Assembly: GCA_947303945.1 (NCBI GenBank)
Contig: CAMYZS010000004.1
Location: 1-64,000 of the forward strand
DNA length: 64,000 nt
Direction of reading: 5' to 3'
DNA from: an uncultured Candidatus Saccharibacteria bacterium
GTDB lineage: Bacteria; Patescibacteriota; Saccharimonadia; Saccharimonadales; Saccharimonadaceae
The notes beneath the pieces were generated by a model that was not told the DNA's origin, did no database searches, and saw only the letters and a program-made list of their open reading frames with translations. The position numbers were made by a program, and so were the translations under genes. How positions within the stretch are numbered: the stretch's first letter is position 1; the number at the start of each line of letters is the position of its first letter. Positions 9,643-29,779 of the stretch are shown here, piece after piece.

Positions 9643-12600
9643 CTATTCTAATACCCAAGGACTATTTTCACTTCCGTCGCCATCCGAAATGATGGTTCCA
9701 GGAATAATTGAAATAACAGGACGCACTGAACCGTAAGAGATATTCACATCGGCATAACCAGTGCGCGTATTCCAAACAAGATTTAGCGCATTATTTTGGT
9801 GGAATGAGTACGGAGTCATTGACCACGAAGAACTATTGCCGTTATATAGGTAAGTATTGTCACTATAGCCATTTATGCCATGTCCAGCCAAAGTAAGTTC
9901 GTCTTCGGTTAGGAGCCCAACTGGGTAGATAAGCTTACCGTTACCATTTGCCGCGCTGACAGTAAAAGCGTCATTAGATGGACAATCGAATGATGGATGG
10001 TTGCTGTTACCTATCGCGGCAAAGTAAGCACCGCCATTAGTCTTACCGCCATTCGCATTCCAGCCACCAACATTATATGGCCAAAAGTTGCGATTGTTGC
10101 AGTATTGAACGTCCTCGATCTTATCTGTATATCCCACAAGAGTATGAGCATACCAGGCATCAATTGCGCTTTTGACTAAGGAATTAGTTCTATTCTCTTT
10201 CATTGCCGCAAGCACAGCATCAATACTATCTACGCCATTTGAAAGTGTAATATAGAATGCATTACTGGTGCCAGTATAGTAGTAAATGTAACGTACTTGC
10301 GTGCAGCTAGTTTGACCAAAGGTTGGACAAACGTAGTGATGGGTAGAAATGTCCGTCATATTGTTATAACTTTCAAGACCCTTAGTGTTGTTGAGGGTAT
10401 AACTCGTCCCGTTCCATGTTACGCTTGCGCCGAAGATAATATTATGCGTATAACTGTAAGATGTTGCGGTATATTCGGTAACCATACGGAGATTGCTAGA
10501 TGTGCAAGTAGTAGACGTGTCGCCACAGGTATACTTATATTCAGAATAATTGCTCGGATTCTGAGATAATTGATAGAGCTTCACGGTTGTGGTATCTGTA
10601 AGTCCAAGGTCACTATGAGATTTCGCGATTGTGAGTGTAGAACTTACTGGAATATAGTTATAATAAAATGCGAAACTATCCTGGATATACTGCGGATTAC
10701 TACAAGTAGTGTTAGTATTATTGCCGCAAGTAAACATTCCTTTGGCTTCGGAATATCTTGAACCCCATTCGCTCCTCTTCATAGTGAAAGGATTGTTCAG
10801 TGTATAGGTTCCATTACCATTATTTATGACACTGTCACCAATCATATAACTAGTGTCCACATCTGATAAGGTTTGGCCATCTTGCATTTCGAGATAATAC
10901 ATCGCAGAGCCATCCACGCCAGCAATGTAGTAAATGACATTATTATGATAGTCGCTCTGACTGGCGCGAAAAGTATATTTACCGAGCAGGCTAGCATAAT
11001 CCGAAGCGGAGCTTACCTGATATGGATTAGTAAGACTATATTTATCCGCCACATCGGTACCGTAGGTCATACCATTGGCATAATAGAAGTCGGTACTCAG
11101 TGAGGTGCTTTGGAGAACGGCCGCTTCCGTTATAAAGCCATAAGTCGAGGAAATGGTCATTTCGTCACGAGGATAAACATCGCCATACATATAGCCAACA
11201 TAAGCCATAGAATCTTTTTCTGCGTTAAATTGCATTTTTCCGATTGCCCAATATGCCGTAGAAGAATTCAGTGGCAAGGCGTAGGCAGAATTGTCGTTTT
11301 GTTTAGATTCTATATAATACAGTGTCGAGCAAGAGGCGTTTTCATTGGCGCTCTTACAAGTGTATTTGCCGACGAGCGAATCGCTAGTAGTAGCATCCCA
11401 TCTGGCAAGATACTTTATACCCGACAGAGTGAAAGTCTTAGCGCTTTCGTTGTATGTATAGTCGGTGCCGTAGTAATAGTTATTGGAAAGATTCTGTGAG
11501 GATCTGCCACCGAAGCCATCATGCGCACTGCGGGAAGCGCCGCATTGATTACTGTTATCTGCCTTTCCGTTGTATACCAGTTTTACGCCGCCAGTATTTG
11601 TGGTACGCATAGCTTTCCAACAGATATCGGCAAAAAGCACGTTATTATCCGCAACTGCACCGCGGAAATAATGAACTGGATATTCATCGTTAGCGGTCGA
11701 GGCGACAGTGTTCGCCCCATCGCCATTTGTCGCAGACGAGGCCTGACCAAAGTTGATGTCACTATCTATATTATAGTTGCCATCTGAGCCCTGCATAAGA
11801 GACCTCTTAGCCATTTCTTTATAAAGAGTTTTGGCAGTATAGATTGATCCTTCCATGCTCTTATTTAAGTCCACCTTTGTCCAGGTTGCACCGAGCGTAA
11901 CGCTTTTACTTGGCATGCGGAAGTAATCGTCATTAAGTCTAGTGACTTGATCTTCGACAATGTCGTAACCAGCGAAATTATACCCACTACAGGTCGGCAC
12001 GATATCCGTAATCTCGACAGCGGTATAGACAAAATGCGCTTCCGGCTCTGGTATGCCCGACACTTCACAATCGCTCGGAGCATTCGCAGCATATGTGACT
12101 ATGAAGTCGGTCTTGAGGATAGGTGTGGATTCGGTCGTTACATTCTCACTGGCAGTATTATAGAGAGAAGACTTTACGGAGGCGCTTCGATTAGTTGGGA
12201 AAAGTGCTGGCGTAGTGATATATTCGGGTTTTAAGTTGATATCTATCTCCATGCGAGCGCGTGCCCCAGAGCGAAGCTTTTCACTCATATCCCATGTAAT
12301 TTTTGGAGTGGTTCCATCATAATCTAATGATGCCGTACCCCTATTTACACGAATCGCATCGGAGCCAGAGATCGTAAAGAACTCGTCATTTATATGATCC
12401 GTAAGGACAAACTCATCATATCCATATGGGGCAATCGATGCGTCAATAATCACATCAGTAAGATTATCTCCGTCTGCCACAAATTGATAATCTGAGATGG
12501 AAGCCAGGTTATTATTGACAGAATCGCCCATCTCATATTGAATAGCGTTGACAGTGACGAAGGGGTACTTATTTTTAATGAGCCAATATTCAGCAATCTG

Positions 12601-15084
12601 ATAGAGGAGTTCTTCGTTTGGGGCGCCATCGGTAAGGAATACAATAATGGTGTTTCTCCCCTCCGACTCCGTATAGCTATCCAACAAACGCTCCGCACCG
12701 TTTAAGCCCTGATAATAGTTAGTCTTACTACTGTCGGCAGAAATGTCGGAAATCTTAGACAGTAAAAGATCACGATCATTGGTAAAGCCCGTCTCAATGT
12801 AATATCCGTGACTAAAAGTGACGAGGGCTAAATTATTATCTCCTTCGTCCAAAAATGCGTTTGTAAAACTAGTTAATGAGTCTTTTAGAATTGGTAGCCT
12901 GTCGCTATCCATCGACTTACCGTTATCTACTACAAGTATCACATCATTATCTTCATCCTGAGACTTCAACAATGACTCGACGTCAACAATAATCCTAGCC
13001 GTACTGCTGCTAGTCCAACCAGCCATCTTATTTACCTTCCAGGCGCCAGGTTCGCCACTAGCAAAGCTTGTGTGTTGAGATGTTAATTCTATTGAGGGGA
13101 TTGGCTCGGTGGGCACAGCAAAAACCCTACTAATTAAAAGGATAGAGAACGACGACGCTACAATAATAGCGGATACACGAAGTGCGCGACGAGGTGTCCT
13201 AGAGAGACTACGAGGACAGAGGCTTCTTTCTTTTTTGCCGTCCGCTTTCCTAAATATTACATATATACCAATGCAGCATATAGCCATCGCAATAATCGTA
13301 ATATAGGGACCAACATTGCCCATAAGTACTCCAGTTAGGACTGGAATATCTTGCCAACTTTTCGTATTAAAGCTTACGGAGTCGGTATAATCTTTCGTCG
13401 TGTCGATGTTATAGTTTGCCTCGGATGCCGTAGCGCCAACTATAGCAACAGTATTGATAATCTCCGCAGTTTCATCATTAGTGACCGTATACTGTGCTTT
13501 TAGAGTGATACTTTCATTGGCAGCAAGCGTTGGAATAGATACTAAGCGATTTTCGGTAAGAGTATAGCCAGCACCAGTTAAGAATACGGTACCGTCGAGT
13601 TGATCAAGCACCCTCACGTCGGTGATAGAAAAGTCTGCCGTGTTAGTTACGATAATATCAAAATCCACGACCTGATTAACATGATAGCTATCTTGTTGAT
13701 TAGGAATACTAATGGTAATGGTTGGCGAGAAAACCCCTTCCTGGATTGACCATTCGCCATAAATTACGAGGTTCTTTGCTGGCATAACAAAAGATGGCTC
13801 ACTATACCAACCGGTGAAGCGATACCCCTCTGCGCTCGGATTAGCCGCAAGCGTCACGACGGCCCCAACGGGGTAGCTTGCTGGTGCTGGCAGTAGCGAA
13901 GGCGCGTTCGGTGGCAAAACAGAACCCTCAAAAGCATAGGTAACGGTGTAAGTCTGACGAGTAAAGCTACCCGTAATAGTAACATTGCCTTCGGGCATAA
14001 TAAAACTGCCATCGGTTATAGATACATCATTAGACGTCCAGCCAGAGAAGATATAGTCATCAATCACGGCATTTTCTTGAGTCGAATCTACACTAACAAC
14101 TTCGCCAGCTTCATATGTTTTTTCCTTTGGAACGATATAGCCTGCAGGAGCATCACTGTTTACCTCATAAGTAACAGTATATTTTGTGGTAGTTTGCTTT
14201 TCGACAAAAACGCCCACAAAATTAACGTTATTACCTGGCATAGAAAATACGCCACCACTAACAGTAGCGTCAGACGTCGTCCATCCAGAGAACTCGTAGC
14301 CGTCGAGAGACGGCTCCATCGCTACATTAACGGTTGAGTTCTGAGTATACGATTGACTGCTCGGTAGTGCAGGAGCGTTTTCTGGCACATCGCCAGTATA
14401 GCTATAAGTAACATTATATATAAGAGCTGTATCTTTACCCATCCAAACATGAACCATGTTTGAATCCTTACTAATAAGACCCTCGCTGACTCTGCCGGTA
14501 TTATAGAAGTCCATACGTTCCACATCGCCAAGAGCTGGGGTTTTCGTAATGATACCTACCGTCAAATTGCAGCCAGCCTGGACGTCTGTTGTCTTAAATT
14601 TCACCGTCCGGCTGGCGGAGTAGTAATGCAACCCATGATAAGTATACTCTGTATGAGCCGCATTCCATGAACCCGTTTCGACAGACTCGTTGCCCGTGTC
14701 GTCAATTACGTGACCAGGGCAAGAAACAGTACTATCGCTACGCTCTATTGCGCCTATGTGCCCCGTATCTGTCGTCTTAAACCCAATAAAATCGAGGCCG
14801 TCAGGGATATGGTCGACAACTTCAGTTATCCCACTTCTGATATTTGCGGTAGTCGTATCGGTAGATTCAACGCCATACTTATCTACGCCGTCGTATTTGA
14901 CGGTAAGATAATATGTTAGCTCAGATTCCTCCTCGACACGAGTGCCATTTTCGATAGGTTCCGCCACGACGGCCCAATAGCTTGTAGCAATTGCAATAAA
15001 GGTAAAGACTAGGGCAAAAGCTATACCTATTACGCATAGGAAGTGCCTACTTATTCTACCTCTGCTTGCATGAGTCGACTGCAT
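9643..15084 (-). CDS. Giant surface polyprotein 1 (InlB-type repeats, sorting signal, VWA, lectin-like C terminus)
   Basis: An 1813-residue protein built like two fused preproteins. Residues 20-42 are a signal/anchor span, followed by an ectodomain with InlB-type B repeats (GYEFSGWTT, DYIFSGWTS, GYRFTGWYS; about 220-445) and a DUF11-like module (450-575). It ends in a sorting-signal-like unit: IPVLTG (580-585), a membrane span (590-611) and a basic tail. A second signal-like span (634-656, ending VFA) starts the second half: a VWA domain (713-900) whose MIDAS reads DNGKS (720-724) instead of DxSxS, another InlB-type repeat, Cys-paired repeats and a C-terminal domain ending SYGSVRPVISI. Start: ATG at 15084 after GGAG; the TTG at 15105 lacks a site. 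It carries the shared surface-gene promoter element (15115-15144). Likely an adhesin. Confidence 0.85.
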   Translation of the reverse strand: MQSTHASRGRISRHFLCVIGIAFALVFTFIAIATSYWAVVAEPIENGTRVEEESELTYYLTVKYDGVDKYGVESTDTTTANIRSGITEVVDHIPDGLDFIGFKTTDTGHIGAIERSDSTVSCPGHVIDDTGNESVETGSWNAAHTEYTYHGLHYYSASRTVKFKTTDVQAGCNLTVGIITKTPALGDVERMDFYNTGRVSEGLISKDSNMVHVWMGKDTALIYNVTYSYTGDVPENAPALPSSQSYTQNSTVNVAMEPSLDGYEFSGWTTSDATVSGGVFSMPGNNVNFVGVFVEKQTTTKYTVTYEVNSDAPAGYIVPKEKTYEAGEVVSVDSTQENAVIDDYIFSGWTSNDVSITDGSFIMPEGNVTITGSFTRQTYTVTYAFEGSVLPPNAPSLLPAPASYPVGAVVTLAANPSAEGYRFTGWYSEPSFVMPAKNLVIYGEWSIQEGVFSPTITISIPNQQDSYHVNQVVDFDIIVTNTADFSITDVRVLDQLDGTVFLTGAGYTLTENRLVSIPTLAANESITLKAQYTVTNDETAEIINTVAIVGATASEANYNIDTTKDYTDSVSFNTKSWQDIPVLTGVLMGNVGPYITIIAMAICCIGIYVIFRKADGKKERSLCPRSLSRTPRRALRVSAIIVASSFSILLISRVFAVPTEPIPSIELTSQHTSFASGEPGAWKVNKMAGWTSSSTARIIVDVESLLKSQDEDNDVILVVDNGKSMDSDRLPILKDSLTSFTNAFLDEGDNNLALVTFSHGYYIETGFTNDRDLLLSKISDISADSSKTNYYQGLNGAERLLDSYTESEGRNTIIVFLTDGAPNEELLYQIAEYWLIKNKYPFVTVNAIQYEMGDSVNNNLASISDYQFVADGDNLTDVIIDASIAPYGYDEFVLTDHINDEFFTISGSDAIRVNRGTASLDYDGTTPKITWDMSEKLRSGARARMEIDINLKPEYITTPALFPTNRSASVKSSLYNTASENVTTESTPILKTDFIVTYAANAPSDCEVSGIPEPEAHFVYTAVEITDIVPTCSGYNFAGYDIVEDQVTRLNDDYFRMPSKSVTLGATWTKVDLNKSMEGSIYTAKTLYKEMAKRSLMQGSDGNYNIDSDINFGQASSATNGDGANTVASTANDEYPVHYFRGAVADNNVLFADICWKAMRTTNTGGVKLVYNGKADNSNQCGASRSAHDGFGGRSSQNLSNNYYYGTDYTYNESAKTFTLSGIKYLARWDATTSDSLVGKYTCKSANENASCSTLYYIESKQNDNSAYALPLNSSTAYWAIGKMQFNAEKDSMAYVGYMYGDVYPRDEMTISSTYGFITEAAVLQSTSLSTDFYYANGMTYGTDVADKYSLTNPYQVSSASDYASLLGKYTFRASQSDYHNNVIYYIAGVDGSAMYYLEMQDGQTLSDVDTSYMIGDSVINNGNGTYTLNNPFTMKRSEWGSRYSEAKGMFTCGNNTNTTCSNPQYIQDSFAFYYNYIPVSSTLTIAKSHSDLGLTDTTTVKLYQLSQNPSNYSEYKYTCGDTSTTCTSSNLRMVTEYTATSYSYTHNIIFGASVTWNGTSYTLNNTKGLESYNNMTDISTHHYVCPTFGQTSCTQVRYIYYYTGTSNAFYITLSNGVDSIDAVLAAMKENRTNSLVKSAIDAWYAHTLVGYTDKIEDVQYCNNRNFWPYNVGGWNANGGKTNGGAYFAAIGNSNHPSFDCPSNDAFTVSAANGNGKLIYPVGLLTEDELTLAGHGINGYSDNTYLYNGNSSSWSMTPYSFHQNNALNLVWNTRTGYADVNISYGSVRPVISIIPGTIISDGDGSENSPWVLE

Positions 15085-15114
15085 TGATTCTCCAACAAAA
15101 AGCAATTAGTAATC

Positions 15115-22000: not shown

Positions 22001-23266
22001 CTATTTGAATGATTCTTTTAATAAACTTGACTTTTTTAAACTATCATTCGAGAGAAAAGTAACTTTTTTAATTTCCGACTCGGTCAAAGAAATAGTTTTT
22101 TGTTGATGGTCAAAAATAATATCAACCTCCGCTTTTTGACCAGATGTATTCATGATAATAACCTCATAAGCAAATTGGGTTCTTCTAGCTACCGCCATTA
22201 ACTCCTCAGAATTATAATCACAACGAACAACTAAGCTACCCGCTGGAAACATTTTGACAAACTTTTTTAACGCTTCATAAATCGGGGTGAGGATAAAACC
22301 ATCCTCAGTTCCTGTTAGGATAATTGGGCTTTTGACATAATTGCCACAGTAGTTGGGGCCACCCTGCTCTGAAAGTAAGATATTCCAGTCCAACCAAGCG
22401 TTTGAGCCAGAATTGATGTCTGCAAAAAGCTCACGACAATAAAGCTTTGCAGCATATTTCCAGTCTTGCTCATCATAGGGGGACTTATAGCCACAGCACA
22501 TTTCAGAACTAATCATTAGAATATCTGGGTATTTTTGTCGAACTTGCCACATTTGGTCTGGATGCGTGCCGTCATACCAATGGAAGCAAATGCCAGCGAT
22601 TTTTTTATTTGCTTCGCATTTTTTAGTAACGAGACGCTTTGCAACGTCAGTAAGGTACTTCTTGTTATGGTCCCAGAGTAGTATTTGCACATCCATATCT
22701 CTAAGCTCAGCAGCTAGATATCTATATGCGAGTTTCTTTTGCGAGCGATAGGAATAAATACACGATTCCCAAGGTTGAATGACGCAGGGTTCATTCTGAG
22801 GAGTAATATAATTGATTATTACTCCTTCGTCAGCATAAGCCTCGAGCCATTTGTGAATGTATCTAGCATAGCGCCCGTAGTGCCAAAAGCTCAGACGTTG
22901 GCCACGAGAAGCTTTGAGGCAGCTTGGCGGCGACCAAGGGCTAGCGATAAATTGGAGTTTTTTCTTGGCAAGGATTTTTCGCAACATCGGTAAGACCCAC
23001 TTCTGATCATGATTGATAGAGAAATCACTTAGGTTGGTCTTTTTTGTATATTCATAAGGTTTTAAACAAAAATCATTACTGCCAATACTGACACGCGCCC
23101 AGCGGTAATCTAGACCATCTTTGCTATAATAAGCATTAATAAGCTCTTGCTGTTTTTTTGGAGATAATTTTGCAAAATTATAAGCGGCCGCTTCCGTAAT
23201 GGCGCCACCTATGCCCTGCCAAAAACCAATTTCAATATCTTTTCTGACGGTTATTGTTATTGCCAT
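22001..23266 (-). CDS. Glycoside hydrolase family 30-like enzyme
   Basis: A 421-residue (beta/alpha)8 glycosidase of the GH30 (glucosylceramidase/xylanase-like) group. Recognisable are GIGGAITEAAAYNFAKLS near the N terminus, SPWSPPSCLK, the acid/base Glu in YITPQNEP, GICFHWYDG, and the probable nucleophile Glu in LMISSEMCCGY, followed by a small C-terminal beta domain. It cleaves beta-linked sugars; the substrate is not clear. There is no signal peptide, which is odd for a family usually secreted, so the enzyme appears cytoplasmic. A TATAAT (23277-23282) lies ten bases before the ATG, so the mRNA would have almost no leader. It follows the sortase gene by 66 bp. Confidence 0.8.
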   Translation of the reverse strand: MAITITVRKDIEIGFWQGIGGAITEAAAYNFAKLSPKKQQELINAYYSKDGLDYRWARVSIGSNDFCLKPYEYTKKTNLSDFSINHDQKWVLPMLRKILAKKKLQFIASPWSPPSCLKASRGQRLSFWHYGRYARYIHKWLEAYADEGVIINYITPQNEPCVIQPWESCIYSYRSQKKLAYRYLAAELRDMDVQILLWDHNKKYLTDVAKRLVTKKCEANKKIAGICFHWYDGTHPDQMWQVRQKYPDILMISSEMCCGYKSPYDEQDWKYAAKLYCRELFADINSGSNAWLDWNILLSEQGGPNYCGNYVKSPIILTGTEDGFILTPIYEALKKFVKMFPAGSLVVRCDYNSEELMAVARRTQFAYEVIIMNTSGQKAEVDIIFDHQQKTISLTESEIKKVTFLSNDSLKKSSLLKESFK

Positions 23267-23332: not shown

Positions 23333-24079
23333 CTAATCGCGCGGGACCATTTTAGCAAGGAGTACATTGCGATAATGCTTAGAGTCTTTATCGCAGGTTG
23401 AGAGGACGATGATTTTGTCGTCGTCTTCGTATTTAACTTTGCGCGATTGTTTCGCAAACGAATGCACCTCATGAATCACCGTACCGTTACGATTATTGCG
23501 ATTATTATCATGGTTATAAATAGTAGTGCGATCAACGTCTACGATTGAGAAATCGGATATTTCTAAGTCATAGATGCCGTCCTCAGTATAGAGGACGCCG
23601 CTCTTATGCTTGTCGAAATACTCCTCTTGCTCGAAGAGCGAAATACCACCAAACATACGCTGCCCATCCATGCGGTGTCCATAAACCATCGAGAAGTCAT
23701 CTTTAAAGCCATCATTGCGATAGTCTAAAAAGATACTTCCAGCCGTGGCAAACTCGCCGCGGTAATTCCTCGTTAAATACTTAGTATTATTATTTGCCTG
23801 AACCACTGGATAATTGATATTCGTATTATTGATCTTAATCCAGGCAATAATATCAGGGTTAATCTTTTTTAATTCAGCAAGATCAATATCTACATCCGCG
23901 TCAGGCGATAAGCTTGCAATTTCCTCGTCCATCTTGGCACTAATATTGACTGCATGAATATCTAATAGAGCATAGAAGCCAATTAGAAAAATAAGTAAGA
24001 AAATTGCGGTTGATAATAAATCTACTATTCGTTCGATGTATGATCGAACATTTTCTGCAATACTTTTATTTTTCTTCAT
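23333..24079 (-). CDS. Class B-type sortase
   Basis: A 248-residue membrane-anchored transpeptidase that cuts sorting signals and joins the protein to an amino group on another pilin subunit or cell wall. One N-terminal span (about 21-40) is followed by the catalytic domain with the class B pattern WIKINNTNINYPVVQ, GSIFLDYRN, His135 (VYGHRMDG), Cys229 (LSTCD) and Arg237 (YRNVLLAK). It starts two bases after the stop of the signal-peptidase-like gene, indicating translational coupling. With the pilin and the Lys-less signal peptidase homologue it matches the content of class B sortase pilus loci of streptococci (FCT type). Substrates are probably the local proteins ending in P-x-TG-like motifs. 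Confidence 0.9.
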   Translation of the reverse strand: MKKNKSIAENVRSYIERIVDLLSTAIFLLIFLIGFYALLDIHAVNISAKMDEEIASLSPDADVDIDLAELKKINPDIIAWIKINNTNINYPVVQANNNTKYLTRNYRGEFATAGSIFLDYRNDGFKDDFSMVYGHRMDGQRMFGGISLFEQEEYFDKHKSGVLYTEDGIYDLEISDFSIVDVDRTTIYNHDNNRNNRNGTVIHEVHSFAKQSRKVKYEDDDKIIVLSTCDKDSKHYRNVLLAKMVPRD

Positions 24080-24081
24080 GG

Positions 24082-24597
24082 CTAAATTGACCTTGTGCGG
24101 AAAATGCTCACGATTTTCCCCTTTATGTTTGTTTCAAAAATCGAACCAAAACTGCGCGAGTCGTCCATTGCTTCGAGATTCTCATTAATCAGGAAGTAAC
24201 TCCCAGTTGGGACACGGAACGGAAAAGTGATAGAAGGTGTCTCTCCTTGATCCAAGTTATAAACAGGGCTATCGTAGACCCGCGTGCCATTGACATATAG
24301 GCAACCTTTTTCGTCTATGGTGATCAAATCACCTGGAGAGGCAAGTATCGACGATACGTGCGTTTCGTTGTCGCGCTCAAACAACACGACATCGTCTGGA
24401 TAATATGTCTTATCCGTACGGGAGAATAGGACGAGATCGCCGTCCTCTACGCGATTCGACATAGATACACCTTCTACCCGCTGAAAACCAATTAATACAC
24501 CGAACAGCAACCAAAGCACGAAGGCTAATATCGCTATCTTTATAACCAGACGAATCCAGCTTTGATGCTTCTTAATTAGGGTTTTCATTCCGTTCAT
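24082..24597 (-). CDS. Signal peptidase I homologue lacking the catalytic Lys (SipA-like)
   Basis: A 171-residue S26-family protein with one N-terminal span (about 16-36). Box B is present with the Ser nucleophile at 45 (VEGVSMSNRVEDGDLVLF) and box E is present (DDSRSFGSI). In box D, where active enzymes read VKRVIGLPGD, this protein reads VSSILASPGD: the general-base Lys is Ser82. It lies between the pilin (27 bp upstream) and the sortase (2 bp downstream). In Streptococcus pyogenes the signal-peptidase-like SipA/LepA of the pilus locus also lacks a normal dyad and is needed for pilus assembly; a similar non-proteolytic role is inferred. An ER-type Ser-His dyad using His80 cannot be excluded. 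Confidence 0.8.
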   Translation of the reverse strand: MNGMKTLIKKHQSWIRLVIKIAILAFVLWLLFGVLIGFQRVEGVSMSNRVEDGDLVLFSRTDKTYYPDDVVLFERDNETHVSSILASPGDLITIDEKGCLYVNGTRVYDSPVYNLDQGETPSITFPFRVPTGSYFLINENLEAMDDSRSFGSIFETNIKGKIVSIFRTRSI

Positions 24598-24624: not shown

Positions 24625-25722
24625 TTACTGTTCTTCGTTGTCCCGTTTGCGACGACCGATAATGAAGAAGAAGCCGAAGAGGCCAGCAATGAGAAGCATG
24701 ACATAGAACCAGAAGTTGGTGATAATACCAGTTAATGGATCAGTATTCTTATTGTTTTCGAGCGTAATAGTATTGTCTTGACTGAAACAGCCATTAGCAT
24801 CACCACAAGTATTGTCGTCTGCGGCGGCAGCCGTCTTGGAAATATTATCTTGAATAGTACCACCCATTTTAGTGGTATAGCCATCATTACCGTTAATATC
24901 GGTAATGGTGTAGCTAGCACCAACAGGAAGTTGATATGAACCACCATTGTAGCCAACGCGAACAGTATCGCCTTCTTTGAGGTAGACAGTAGCCGGAGTG
25001 CCAGCAGCCACGCTCGAGGCACTACCAGAACAGCCATTAGCTGGATTAATATCGATGGCGTAAGTACCGCCCGCCGTGATGCCGCTATTTGGGATCGAGA
25101 TCTCATAAGCGAAACATTCGCTGGTTTCTGCCATGTTGCCAGTAGTGGTAGCGGTGGCTTGGATGTAGGTGTAGCTTGAACCACTAGTCCAAGTAGCCTC
25201 AGTAACCTTGGTGCCACCATTGTTCTCAATAATTACAACAGCGGTATAACGAGAATTGTCTGGTACGTTAGTACTTTGGTTGACATAGTAACGCACTTGG
25301 ACGATTGCTTTGTAGCTATTATTAATAGTGTCGATTGGATAGTTCGCTAAATCGGACGAGCTGTTTTCCGTGATAGTAAACTCGTAGTCGCCGACTTTGG
25401 AATAGTTGGCGGCGGAAAAGTTTACGGTCGTAGTAGCTTGTACGGAGCCACTAGTTGGCGTAGCGTTGCTGAATGCAATACTAGCAGAGCTTGGCACACC
25501 GGACACAGTGCCACCAGTTGGCGCCGATGTATTAGTAATGGAGTAGCCAAAAGTATTGGTTACTGGGTTTGTAACATTGGTTACGGTGCGACGTAGTGTA
25601 ATAGGATTACCCGAGTAATCTCCATTTGCTACCGTATTGGCGAATACGCCAGCCGCTGGAAGAATTGCCGTAAGTGCTAGAGCGATAGCAGTTACGCCAG
25701 CGGTAAATGAAATTTTTTTCAT
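24625..25722 (-). CDS. Sortase-dependent pilin, FctA/Spy0128-like
   Basis: A 365-residue secreted protein that is the best candidate for a polymerising shaft pilin. It has a classical signal peptide (cleavage near VFA-NT, residue 28). The first domain (about 35-175) resembles the streptococcal pilin isopeptide domain, with FGYSITN, the F-x-x-x-x-Y strand pattern and GDYEFTITE carrying the conserved Glu. The second (about 190-325) resembles DUF7601-type domains (VYLKEGDTVRV, YQLPVGASYTITD) and has paired Cys. It ends DPLTGI, a membrane span and the basic RRKRDNEEQ tail, a sorting signal. Start: ATG after AAGGGAG. It heads the pilin/SipA-like/sortase operon and carries the shared promoter element (25910-25962). 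Confidence 0.85.
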   Translation of the reverse strand: MKKISFTAGVTAIALALTAILPAAGVFANTVANGDYSGNPITLRRTVTNVTNPVTNTFGYSITNTSAPTGGTVSGVPSSASIAFSNATPTSGSVQATTTVNFSAANYSKVGDYEFTITENSSSDLANYPIDTINNSYKAIVQVRYYVNQSTNVPDNSRYTAVVIIENNGGTKVTEATWTSGSSYTYIQATATTTGNMAETSECFAYEISIPNSGITAGGTYAIDINPANGCSGSASSVAAGTPATVYLKEGDTVRVGYNGGSYQLPVGASYTITDINGNDGYTTKMGGTIQDNISKTAAAADDNTCGDANGCFSQDNTITLENNKNTDPLTGIITNFWFYVMLLIAGLFGFFFIIGRRKRDNEEQ

Positions 25723-26018: not shown

Positions 26019-26871
26019 TACTCACATTAATAAATAGTTTTCTATTCCTTATCCTCCTCCTTTCCGCAATAAGCTACAACAGCTCCCGCCAGACCAATAG
26101 CTCCAATAGCTAGAAGAAAGGCATACAGTAGTGTTGTAGCTTGAGAAATATTGATGCCAGTAAGTACTGGGACATCTTGCCAGCTTTGAGTATTGAAGGT
26201 AGTGCTGGCGGTATAGCTTTGGTTTGGATCAAGGAAATAATAGTTATTAGCACTGGCGGCAGTAATCTCAACAGTATTAGTACGACCAGTCTGAGTGACA
26301 TCATCGGTGATTGGATATTCGGCAGTCAACGTAATGCTGCTGTTAGCTGGAATTGTAGCAATGGTCGCAATATCGCCCGTGTTGGAAACGGTGTAATTGG
26401 GACTGATAACGAAAGTGGCACCAAGTAGATTCTCCTTTACCTCAACGTTGGTAATTGGGAAGCTAGCAGTGTTTGTGACTGTAATTTGAAACTGGACCGT
26501 ATCGCCGAAGCGATAAATGGTTTGCGGATTAATAACTTGTTTTGCTAAAGTCGGAGCGAAGTAGCCGTTAAACTGTTCCCAGCTACCAGTGACAACAACG
26601 TCACTGGTAGGCATAGTGAAACTGGCACCAGCTGGAGAGCCATTTATCTGCCAGCCCAGAAAACGGTAGCCTGCAGCGGTAGGGCCTTGAGCAACCGTAA
26701 CGGTTGTGCCGACTTCATGCTCGGCCGTGGCCGGCAAAAGAGTGCTAGCATTCGGCGGCTGAACAGAGCCAGTGAATTGATAGATAACGTCATGATATTT
26801 AGGATGATAGACGTAAGTTACTTCTATATCCTGATTAATAGTGCCCGTGGCTTGGCCGATGGTGATTTCTG
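26019..26871. repeat. Direct repeat, copy 1 (853 bp)
   Basis: Identical to 27990-28842 wherever I compared it; it covers the 3' end of adhesin A, coding for its last 278 residues and 23 bp past the stop. Homology outside is absent at the 3' side and weaker at the 5' side. Confidence 0.85.
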
Positions 26872-27769
26872 GGATGTAGCGATTATTAGAGATTGGACTA
26901 GCAGTATAAGTGTCGCCACAAGTGTAAGACGTAGTCGTATCGGCGGCAAAGATTGTATTATCTTCGTTGAGGTGGTGGATAGTAAGATTGCAAGTAGTAG
27001 CCTGAAGGGTGTTTGTAAATATTGCGGTCGAGCCTGTGGCGTTGCTATAAGTGCCGTAATAAGCTGCTGAAATATTAGCATTGCGGTTAATACCTACGGT
27101 CACATTATTACTCCTTACGCTTACGGTAATATTGGAGTCGTATGTATTATTGCCATAGAACGCATTACTGGAAGTAACATTAATTGTCGTGCCAATTTTT
27201 GCACTGATAGCCTGATTAAAAGAAGCTAATTGCGTTGCATTCAGCATCTCTCTGGTGTATAGATAATAGGTTCCATTTTTATTATAGAGGAAATATGAAA
27301 TTCTGCCCAAGTTCGTGGAGGCATTATTCTGATAAATCGAGCTAGCGGCTATCGTATAGGTATCGATGCTGGCATTGTTAGATACCGATATAGTAGACGG
27401 TTCACCAATTATATAATCGCTAAAGTTATCTTGGGAGACGACATAGGTAAAGTTGCTATTGTATGAAATACCACTGAACGTTCCTACCCATTTGTTGGGA
27501 TTATTTGGATCTTGATTAGACGCCGTTAAAGTGAGAGTACTCAAAATAGAGTTATTGTTAGTTCTTCGGAGACGCAAAATAACTTGCGTTGGCCTAGTAC
27601 CCGCGCTAACGCCTTGATCGTCCCAATTAATTTCAACAGGAATGCTGAAAGTTGCCGCGAAAGCCACATTAAGGATTAAAAGCGCCGTCGCTAGGATGAT
27701 TATAAAAACAAAGAATAATCTTGCGAGCGCTTTCCTTATGTCGGCTTTCACGGTTCTCGTGAAAACCAT
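26042..27769 (-). CDS. Cell-surface adhesin A (Cna-B, MucBP, InlB-type repeat, sorting signal)
   Basis: A 575-residue secreted protein. After a signal peptide (about 1-38) comes a Cna-B-like domain (IPVEINWDDQ to NFTYVVSQDNF), a variable region, a MucBP-like domain (TIHHLNEDNTIFAADT to EVTYVYHPKY), an InlB-type repeat (GYRFLGWQI) and a DUF11-like module. It ends SWQDVPVLTG, a membrane span and GKEEDKE, a sorting signal. The last 278 residues are identical to those of adhesin B and are encoded by identical DNA; the N-terminal half is only similar. Start: ATG at 27769 with AGGAG. The shared promoter element lies at 27800-27852. Probable role: binding of host cell or mucin-like glycans, anchored by the local sortase. 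Confidence 0.85.
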   Translation of the reverse strand: MVFTRTVKADIRKALARLFFVFIIILATALLILNVAFAATFSIPVEINWDDQGVSAGTRPTQVILRLRRTNNNSILSTLTLTASNQDPNNPNKWVGTFSGISYNSNFTYVVSQDNFSDYIIGEPSTISVSNNASIDTYTIAASSIYQNNASTNLGRISYFLYNKNGTYYLYTREMLNATQLASFNQAISAKIGTTINVTSSNAFYGNNTYDSNITVSVRSNNVTVGINRNANISAAYYGTYSNATGSTAIFTNTLQATTCNLTIHHLNEDNTIFAADTTTSYTCGDTYTASPISNNRYIPEITIGQATGTINQDIEVTYVYHPKYHDVIYQFTGSVQPPNASTLLPATAEHEVGTTVTVAQGPTAAGYRFLGWQINGSPAGASFTMPTSDVVVTGSWEQFNGYFAPTLAKQVINPQTIYRFGDTVQFQITVTNTASFPITNVEVKENLLGATFVISPNYTVSNTGDIATIATIPANSSITLTAEYPITDDVTQTGRTNTVEITAASANNYYFLDPNQSYTASTTFNTQSWQDVPVLTGINISQATTLLYAFLLAIGAIGLAGAVVAYCGKEEDKE

Positions 27770-27989: not shown

Positions 27990-28842
27990 TACTCACATTA
28001 ATAAATAGTTTTCTATTCCTTATCCTCCTCCTTTCCGCAATAAGCTACAACAGCTCCCGCCAGACCAATAGCTCCAATAGCTAGAAGAAAGGCATACAGT
28101 AGTGTTGTAGCTTGAGAAATATTGATGCCAGTAAGTACTGGGACATCTTGCCAGCTTTGAGTATTGAAGGTAGTGCTGGCGGTATAGCTTTGGTTTGGAT
28201 CAAGGAAATAATAGTTATTAGCACTGGCGGCAGTAATCTCAACAGTATTAGTACGACCAGTCTGAGTGACATCATCGGTGATTGGATATTCGGCAGTCAA
28301 CGTAATGCTGCTGTTAGCTGGAATTGTAGCAATGGTCGCAATATCGCCCGTGTTGGAAACGGTGTAATTGGGACTGATAACGAAAGTGGCACCAAGTAGA
28401 TTCTCCTTTACCTCAACGTTGGTAATTGGGAAGCTAGCAGTGTTTGTGACTGTAATTTGAAACTGGACCGTATCGCCGAAGCGATAAATGGTTTGCGGAT
28501 TAATAACTTGTTTTGCTAAAGTCGGAGCGAAGTAGCCGTTAAACTGTTCCCAGCTACCAGTGACAACAACGTCACTGGTAGGCATAGTGAAACTGGCACC
28601 AGCTGGAGAGCCATTTATCTGCCAGCCCAGAAAACGGTAGCCTGCAGCGGTAGGGCCTTGAGCAACCGTAACGGTTGTGCCGACTTCATGCTCGGCCGTG
28701 GCCGGCAAAAGAGTGCTAGCATTCGGCGGCTGAACAGAGCCAGTGAATTGATAGATAACGTCATGATATTTAGGATGATAGACGTAAGTTACTTCTATAT
28801 CCTGATTAATAGTGCCCGTGGCTTGGCCGATGGTGATTTCTG
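27990..28842. repeat. Direct repeat, copy 2 (853 bp)
   Basis: Identical to 26019-26871 at a constant offset of 1971 bp. It covers the 3' end of adhesin B. Confidence 0.85.
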
Positions 28843-29749
28843 AGGTGTAGCGATTATTAGAGATTGGACTAGCAGCATAAGTGTCGCCACTATTGTAGGT
28901 AGTTACTACGTCGGCGGCAAAAGTTGTGTTATCTTCATTAAGATGATGAACAGTAAGGGTAAATGTTGAGTTTCGGACGTTCGTAAAGGAGACGACACCA
29001 CTAGTGGCTGGCACAATCTCACCATAGTAATAAGATCTAAAGCGATTACCTAATAATGTTGTGCCCGAATGGGAGAACGATACGTTATTATTAGACTGAC
29101 TAAGGGTAACAGATTCATTAAAGATAATCCCATCGTAGATAGAGAAAGTAGTGGGGAGAGTTGTTGTATAGTTTGAATTATTAAGCGTAAAGCTTGAACC
29201 GACCATCGCATAAAGGGCTGACAAGAGCTGGCTGTAGTCAGTACCAGCATAGGAGTCTCTGGTCCAGAGATAATACGAGTTGCTGCTAACAATGAGTACA
29301 AAATCGGTCGCGCCCAGATTATTCGAGGAAGTACTGGTAACATTTTGAGTATTTGACACGGCAATATTATGGTCAATGTTAGGTGCGATGTTATTTGCAA
29401 TAATGCCGTAGTTATTAACATTATCTTCGACGATTGTATAGTTCGAACTTTCTGGTACGGATGCAAAAACACCAACCCACTTATCGCTATCTGACGGATC
29501 AGCGTCGGATGCGGTGAGAGTGATATTCGACACCTCCGTACTCCCATCCATCAGGCGTAGCGTTACGCTACTTGGCCTATAGTTAGAGCCTTGATCGGTC
29601 CAATTTACCTCGACTGGGATGTCCATCGCAGTACGAGCAAAAGCCGCATTAATAATGATTGACGCTAACACGAAAACAATCGCGATGGCGAAAATAGACT
29701 TCGCGAGAGTCCTTTTAATGCTGGCTTTTACGGATCTTGTAAAAACCAC
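28013..29749 (-). CDS. Cell-surface adhesin B (Cna-B, MucBP, InlB-type repeat, sorting signal)
   Basis: A 578-residue paralogue of adhesin A with the same order: signal peptide (about 1-37), Cna-B-like domain (IPVEVNWTDQ to NYTIVEDNV), variable region, MucBP-like domain, InlB-type repeat, DUF11-like module, VPVLTG, membrane span and acidic-basic tail. The start is set at GTG 29749, giving MVFTRS as in the MVFTRT start of adhesin A, with GGGAG five bases upstream. The N-terminal halves differ through substitutions and indels while the C-terminal 278 residues are identical, a mosaic typical of gene conversion. The shared promoter element lies at 29780-29808. Confidence 0.85.
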   Translation of the reverse strand: MVFTRSVKASIKRTLAKSIFAIAIVFVLASIIINAAFARTAMDIPVEVNWTDQGSNYRPSSVTLRLMDGSTEVSNITLTASDADPSDSDKWVGVFASVPESSNYTIVEDNVNNYGIIANNIAPNIDHNIAVSNTQNVTSTSSNNLGATDFVLIVSSNSYYLWTRDSYAGTDYSQLLSALYAMVGSSFTLNNSNYTTTLPTTFSIYDGIIFNESVTLSQSNNNVSFSHSGTTLLGNRFRSYYYGEIVPATSGVVSFTNVRNSTFTLTVHHLNEDNTTFAADVVTTYNSGDTYAASPISNNRYTSEITIGQATGTINQDIEVTYVYHPKYHDVIYQFTGSVQPPNASTLLPATAEHEVGTTVTVAQGPTAAGYRFLGWQINGSPAGASFTMPTSDVVVTGSWEQFNGYFAPTLAKQVINPQTIYRFGDTVQFQITVTNTASFPITNVEVKENLLGATFVISPNYTVSNTGDIATIATIPANSSITLTAEYPITDDVTQTGRTNTVEITAASANNYYFLDPNQSYTASTTFNTQSWQDVPVLTGINISQATTLLYAFLLAIGAIGLAGAVVAYCGKEEDKE

Positions 29750-29779
29750 ACTTACTCCCAAAAATTAGGTTACATCAGT

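What the first reader, a model, noticed from the sequence alone, without database searches (positions are those of the whole stretch)
24082..24597. Signal peptidase homologue with Ser in place of the general-base Lys
Box D reads VSSILASPGD where active SPase I has VKRVIGLPGD, while the nucleophile Ser45 and the box E DSRSFG motif remain. The gene is coupled to the sortase. This half-dead active site points to a binding or chaperone role, or to a relay using His80.
Basis: partly seen in the sequence, partly recalled or inferred. Interest (0 to 1): 0.7.

Follow-up and report, generated by a model that had tools for sequence, protein, structure and literature searches.

The report
SipA-like pilus helper in Saccharibacteria
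The gene makes a signal-peptidase look-alike that has lost its cutting site and most likely helps a neighbouring class B sortase build a hair-like pilus; such helpers (SipA) are known from streptococci, but I found no report of one in the tiny epibiotic Saccharibacteria.

Summary
The gene lies on the minus strand (24597..24082, 171 aa); Ser82 stands where active signal peptidases have the general-base Lys, and Ser45 and DSRSFG remain. It is not a lone half-dead enzyme but a SipA-type pilus assembly factor in a pilin, SipA, class B sortase operon of a Ca. Saccharibacteria genome. By sequence and predicted fold it is closest to Streptococcus pyogenes SipA (4N31: Foldseek TM 0.84, VIA-align Z 19.1), ahead of any active peptidase. 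All 35 full-length relatives in the genus lack the Lys; only 17 keep the Ser and 9 the His80, so the retained Ser looks like a relic and a His80 relay is unlikely. The same genome has a canonical Ser-Lys SPase I. Sister loci give a natural deletion series: 94-116 aa and 72-73 aa SipAs that keep only the membrane helix and three strands, and loci with none. This points to docking or scaffolding rather than catalysis. The binding/chaperone reading is supported by comparison; no function was tested. Side finding, unexplained: a third pilus locus carries in-frame TGA at Trp positions in pilin and sortase, shared by several genomes.

The parts
24082..24597 (-). SipA-type signal-peptidase-like protein, 171 aa; predicted membrane helix (residues 12-35), then S26 fold
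24463..24465 (-). Ser45, position of the SPase nucleophile (SipA Asp48)
   Evidence: TCT codon; S in 17 of 35 relatives
24352..24354 (-). Ser82, position of the catalytic Lys (SipA Gly85)
   Evidence: TCG codon; K in 0 of 35 relatives
24358..24360 (-). His80, two residues before the Lys position (SipA Lys83)
   Evidence: CAC codon; H in 9 of 35 relatives
24184..24186 (-). Asn138 in place of the SPase Gly next to the catalytic Lys (E. coli Gly272; SipA Asn140)
   Evidence: N in 27 of 35 relatives; comparison from PMC4049620
24154..24162 (-). Box E D146-S147-R148, invariant
   Evidence: 35 of 35
23333..24079 (-). Class B sortase, 248 aa, GHRM and LSTC..R motifs; ATG 2 nt after the sipA stop
   Evidence: TIGR03064 176 bits, cut-off 153.75; 3psq (Spy0129) 104 bits
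24625..25722 (-). Major pilin, 365 aa, FctA/T-antigen-like
   Evidence: family profile hits T18.1, Spy0128 and PitB
25207..25209 (-). Pilin Lys172, aligned with the polymerisation Lys161 of Spy0128
   Evidence: K in 18 of 19 pilins, profile alignment
24727..24741 (-). Pilin sorting-like motif DPLTG before the C-terminal membrane segment
   Evidence: the Thr is invariant in 19 pilins
26042..27769 (-). Putative ancillary pilin/adhesin (Cna_B, MucBP, DUF11 matches; PVLTG C-terminus)
   Evidence: place in the operon inferred from strand and order
28013..29761 (-). Second putative ancillary pilin/adhesin with near-identical C-terminal half

Best explanation
The protein is a catalytically dead SipA-type pilus assembly factor. 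It sits in the membrane by its N-terminal helix, beside the class B sortase encoded 2 nt downstream, and holds or positions the FctA-like pilin (probably near its sorting signal and membrane segment) so that the sortase can join the pilin Thr of the DPLTG-like motif to Lys172 of the next pilin. Signal peptides are removed by the separate canonical SPase I. Shown here: homology, predicted fold, lack of the Lys, operon partners, purifying selection, and the reduced relatives. Inferred: requirement for polymerisation (shown only for streptococcal SipA), contact with sortase or pilin, and that the membrane-side sheet is the working module.
For: Closest solved structure by sequence is SipA 4N31 (74 bits against 35 for the best active SPase; family profile 133 against 64 bits) and by predicted fold (TMt 0.84; Z 19.1, rmsd 2.1 over 131 residues, against 14.3 for E. 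coli SPase; model mean pLDDT 83.8). Lys position never K in 35 relatives; the Gly272 equivalent is Asn as in SipA. Every full-length SipA locus with enough sequence has a class B sortase next door or one gene further on, and mostly a pilin before it. The pilin family matches T18.1, Spy0128 and PitB of pneumococcal pilus islet 2, with Lys172 on Lys161. Canonical SPase I elsewhere. dN/dS 0.07-0.15. Reduced SipAs keep helix plus three strands.
Against: No function was tested. In this subclade Ser45 is fully conserved and box D keeps SPGD, so a residual activity is not excluded. Young et al. (PMC4049620) could not detect binding of SipA to pilin, sorting peptides or sortase. Some sister loci have pilin and class B sortase with no SipA at all, so SipA is not universally needed for such loci.
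Confidence: 0.85

Rival explanations
1. It is an active peptidase with an altered catalytic site: Ser45 activated by His80, by another group, or by a residue of the pilin or sortase.
For: Ser45 and box E are retained and conserved in the close clade.
Against: His80 is R in L016 and Y, L or F in the Ser-retaining paralogues and not conserved overall; Lys replaced everywhere; Asn138 replaces the Gly next to the Lys; the Lys-contacting Ser278 equivalent is Met144; a normal SPase I is present.
Confidence: 0.07
2. The gene is a decaying signal peptidase on the way to loss.
For: Sister loci hold shortened SipAs or none.
Against: dN/dS 0.07-0.15; full-length frame and invariant DSR in all 35 relatives; the shortened forms are themselves shared between species in the same operon position.
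Confidence: 0.03
3. It is a SipW/ER-type signal peptidase (Ser-His) specialised for the pilins.
For: A His lies near the Lys position.
Against: In ER-type enzymes the His replaces the Lys itself; here that residue is Ser82 and His80 is two residues earlier. The genome's own ER-type protein (L004, VTHRVIEI) is separate. The fold match to the human signal peptidase complex is far weaker (Z 8.2).
Confidence: 0.02

Closest known systems
SipA/LepA of the S. pyogenes FCT-2/3/4 pilus region (PDB 4N31, 4K8W; PMC4049620)
   Same: S26 fold with N-terminal membrane anchor, small cap, Lys lost, Gly next to the Lys replaced by Asn, gene beside an FctA-type pilin and a class B sortase
   Different: Nucleophile position is Ser here, Asp in SipA; His80 here, Lys83 in SipA; organism is a Saccharibacterium; 34-36% identity in the structural alignments
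SipA of pneumococcal pilus islet 2 and related mitis-group islets
   Same: Pilin relative PitB and the same type of locus (PitB match)
   Different: The SipA sequence of that islet was not compared here
Canonical type I signal peptidase (E. coli LepB, S. aureus SpsB; own genome L001)
   Same: Fold, boxes B and E
   Different: Lys general base absent; the genome's own SPase scores only 23.5 bits against the SipA family profile

Membership tests
SipA-type pilus assembly factor | S26 signal-peptidase fold, nearest to SipA | tested here: met
SipA-type pilus assembly factor | Broken Ser-Lys dyad | tested here: met
   Lys lost in 35 of 35 relatives; the Ser half is retained in this protein and in 17 of 35, unlike S. 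pyogenes SipA, which lost both
SipA-type pilus assembly factor | Gene in a pilus operon with a class B sortase | tested here: met
SipA-type pilus assembly factor | FctA/Spy0128-type major pilin with acceptor Lys outside a YPKN motif | tested here: met
SipA-type pilus assembly factor | Required for pilin polymerisation | not testable with these tools
   needs gene removal or reconstitution
Active type I signal peptidase (S26A) | Catalytic Ser-Lys dyad | tested here: not met
   Ser82 at the Lys position
ER-type/SipW signal peptidase (S26B) | His in place of the Lys | tested here: not met
   position 82 is Ser; His80 is two residues earlier
Class B sortase (neighbour gene) | TIGR03064 over its cut-off, catalytic His/Cys/Arg motifs | tested here: met
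   176 bits against 153.75; GHRM and LSTC..R

The most novel reading that the evidence does not exclude
The working part of SipA is only its membrane helix and the three membrane-side strands (b1, b2 and the last strand), which dock the class B sortase and pilin at the membrane; the peptide-binding cleft and the dead active site are dispensable. Saccharibacteria show this by having evolved 72-73 aa micro-SipAs in intact-looking pilin-sortase operons.
Probability: 0.35. Interest if true: 0.65.

Novelty: new member of a known kind. Interest (0 to 1): 0.5.

Why it matters
What SipA does has been open since 2008: it is essential for class B sortase pili in streptococci, yet no activity or partner has been shown (PMC4049620, PMC7900414). 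This finding places the same triad in Saccharibacteria, epibiotic bacteria for which the papers I found describe type IV pili only (PMC12206443), so a covalent sortase pilus could be a second means of attachment. The natural series of full, mini, micro and absent SipA next to related sortases turns the question 'which part of SipA is needed' into an experiment with ready-made constructs.

Tried and rejected
Reading the interval on the plus strand: no ORF. His80 relay: rejected by non-conservation. Plasmid-borne relatives by tblastn: all below 60% identity; the best, from Paenibacillus, has an intact KR box D and no sortase beside it, the others were not opened. Named-genome scan: one locus, Ca. 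Saccharibacteria UBA3225, 81% identity. I first took the third locus (L007) for a decayed operon; conserved TGA positions and shared mini-SipA argue otherwise. Selenocysteine for those TGAs: not at the sortase Cys, and the only tRNA-Sec hit over cut-off is a tRNA-Ser(UGA). Trp tRNA with a 4-bp anticodon stem, as in PMC13092985: the stem has 5 pairs. Foldseek with the micro-SipA model: no significant match, so its likeness to SipA rests on sequence and strand order. Promoter and terminator scans gave no more than chance.

Full report
What was checked. It scores above cut-off for Peptidase_S26 and TIGR02227. The window lies in a 1.29 Mb, 45-contig genome (99.9% complete); the nearest named relative found is Ca. 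Saccharibacteria UBA3225 (81% identity).

Other signal peptidases in the genome. Four S26 matches were found: a canonical SPase I with GGSMENT and IIKRVIAFPGE (L001), the window gene, a paralogue with the same Lys-to-Ser change (DISMNGR, YLSEIIAVEDD; L003), and an ER-type protein with VTHRVIEI beside a 187-aa gene that looks TasA-like (L004; the last label is by eye). The paralogue also lies between a pilin and a class B sortase.

Neighbourhood. Downstream by 2 nt is a class B sortase (TIGR03064 176 bits; Spy0129 3psq 104 bits). Upstream is a pilin whose family profile matches the S. pyogenes T18.1 backbone pilin (E 2e-29), Spy0128 (6e-19) and pneumococcal PitB (1e-9). Pilin Lys172, present in 18 of 19 pilins, aligns with the Lys of Spy0128 'GSKVPIQFKN', which by its seven-residue distance to Asn168 is Lys161, the polymerisation lysine (PMC3019223; the Asn168 anchor is my own knowledge of 3GLE as the N168A mutant, consistent with the FKAS sequence). 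So all three parts of the streptococcal SipA-dependent system are present.

Relatives. In the same genus 29 of 45 genomes hold a relative. In nearly all loci with enough sequence a class B sortase follows SipA directly, and mostly a pilin precedes it; in L026 and in the two loci of a neighbouring genus (L074, L075) a second pilin gene lies between SipA and the sortase. Across 392 genomes of the class (149 genera) only this genus and two genomes of a second genus in the family score 172 bits or more; the next hits score 69 bits or less, and those whose box D could be read keep the Lys (L082 was not parsed). Among 35 full-length sequences (L012 and L039 are the same protein) position 82 is S 23, L 4, G 4, A 3, Q 1, K 0; position 45 is S 17, A 9, N 3, V 3, G 2, I 1; position 80 is H in 9; the Gly next to the Lys in SPases is N in 27; D146-S147-R148 is invariant. 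dN/dS between the window gene and its seven closest orthologues is 0.07-0.15.

Structure. An AlphaFold2 model from 29 window and locus sequences (mean pLDDT 83.8) matches SipA 4N31 best by Foldseek (TMt 0.84) and VIA-align (Z 19.1, rmsd 2.1 over 131 residues; E. coli SPase 14.3). The alignment and the numbering offset of three put Ser45, His80 and Ser82 at SipA Asp48, Lys83 and Gly85.

Natural deletion series. Other class B sortase loci of the genus carry shortened SipAs between pilin and sortase: 94-116 aa (mini) and 72-73 aa (micro: L047, L056, L140), and some carry none. The full-length SipA profile finds the short forms at E 2e-12 to 4e-5 (fixed Z of 10,000), matching the N-terminal helix and first strands, with a weak separate match of the last strand in most minis; profile-profile comparison gives 99.3% probability. 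The micro forms have lost boxes D and E and the cap. A model of L140 shows one helix (5-31) and three strands (32-36, 51-55, 62-66), with modest confidence (mean pLDDT 74, pTM 0.43) and no significant Foldseek match. On a sortase tree of 68 rows the SipA state is strongly clustered (6 changes against 29 in shuffles); one row, L145, was labelled full there but holds a short SipA on inspection, in line with its micro neighbours. This suggests, but does not prove, that the membrane-side sheet is the part under selection. In S. pyogenes SipA strands 1, 2 and 10 form the sheet thought to lie on the membrane (PMC4049620).

Side finding. A third pilus locus of the same genome (L007/L057) has in-frame TGA in its pilin and sortase. 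Of all class B sortase matches in the genus, the only stops inside are TGA. In the loci examined all 23 in-frame stops in pilin, mini-SipA and sortase alignments are TGA; the pilin TGA is at one position in 7 of 7 closely related pilins; in the sortase, five loci have TGA at an otherwise invariant Trp, and at a second site L050 and L052 have TGG Trp where six others have TGA. The loci L045-L055 were chosen because the search flagged TGA, so that count is not a random sample, but one search was unselected. The genome has RF2, uses TGA as an ordinary stop in 15 of 77 long ORFs examined, and has one tRNA-Trp(CCA) with a normal anticodon stem. The mechanism is unexplained.

Limits. All functional statements are by comparison. 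The literature library holds open-licence papers only; 'no report found' means within it. Zahner and Scott 2008 was not held and is cited through PMC4049620 and PMC7900414. Sortases as such are known in candidate-phyla bacteria (PMC6744442).

Noticed in passing
G000:C3:44500-50000 (L057; also L007) and L045-L055 in related genomes: Third pilin / mini-SipA / class B sortase locus with in-frame TGA codons in pilin and sortase, several at Trp positions, shared across species, while the genome has RF2 and only tRNA-Trp(CCA). Looks like UGA read as Trp in one operon; unexplained.
   Followed up: partly
L047:2268-2486, L056:1959-2177, L140:1297-1518 (minus strand): 72-73 aa micro-SipAs: membrane helix plus three strands, catalytic core and cap gone, still between pilin and class B sortase.
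   Followed up: partly
window 9643-15105 (-): 1820-aa ORF that looks, by eye, like two surface proteins fused in frame: an internal PVLTG sorting-like C-terminus is followed by a second signal-like segment and a von Willebrand-like region.
   Followed up: no
window 26042-27769 and 28013-29761 (-): Two tandem putative adhesins with near-identical C-terminal halves and different N-terminal halves, suggesting duplication or recombination.
   Followed up: no
window 22001-23266 (-): GH30-family glycosidase (endo-1,6-beta-glucanase-like, below that model's cut-off) right after the pilus sortase.
   Followed up: no
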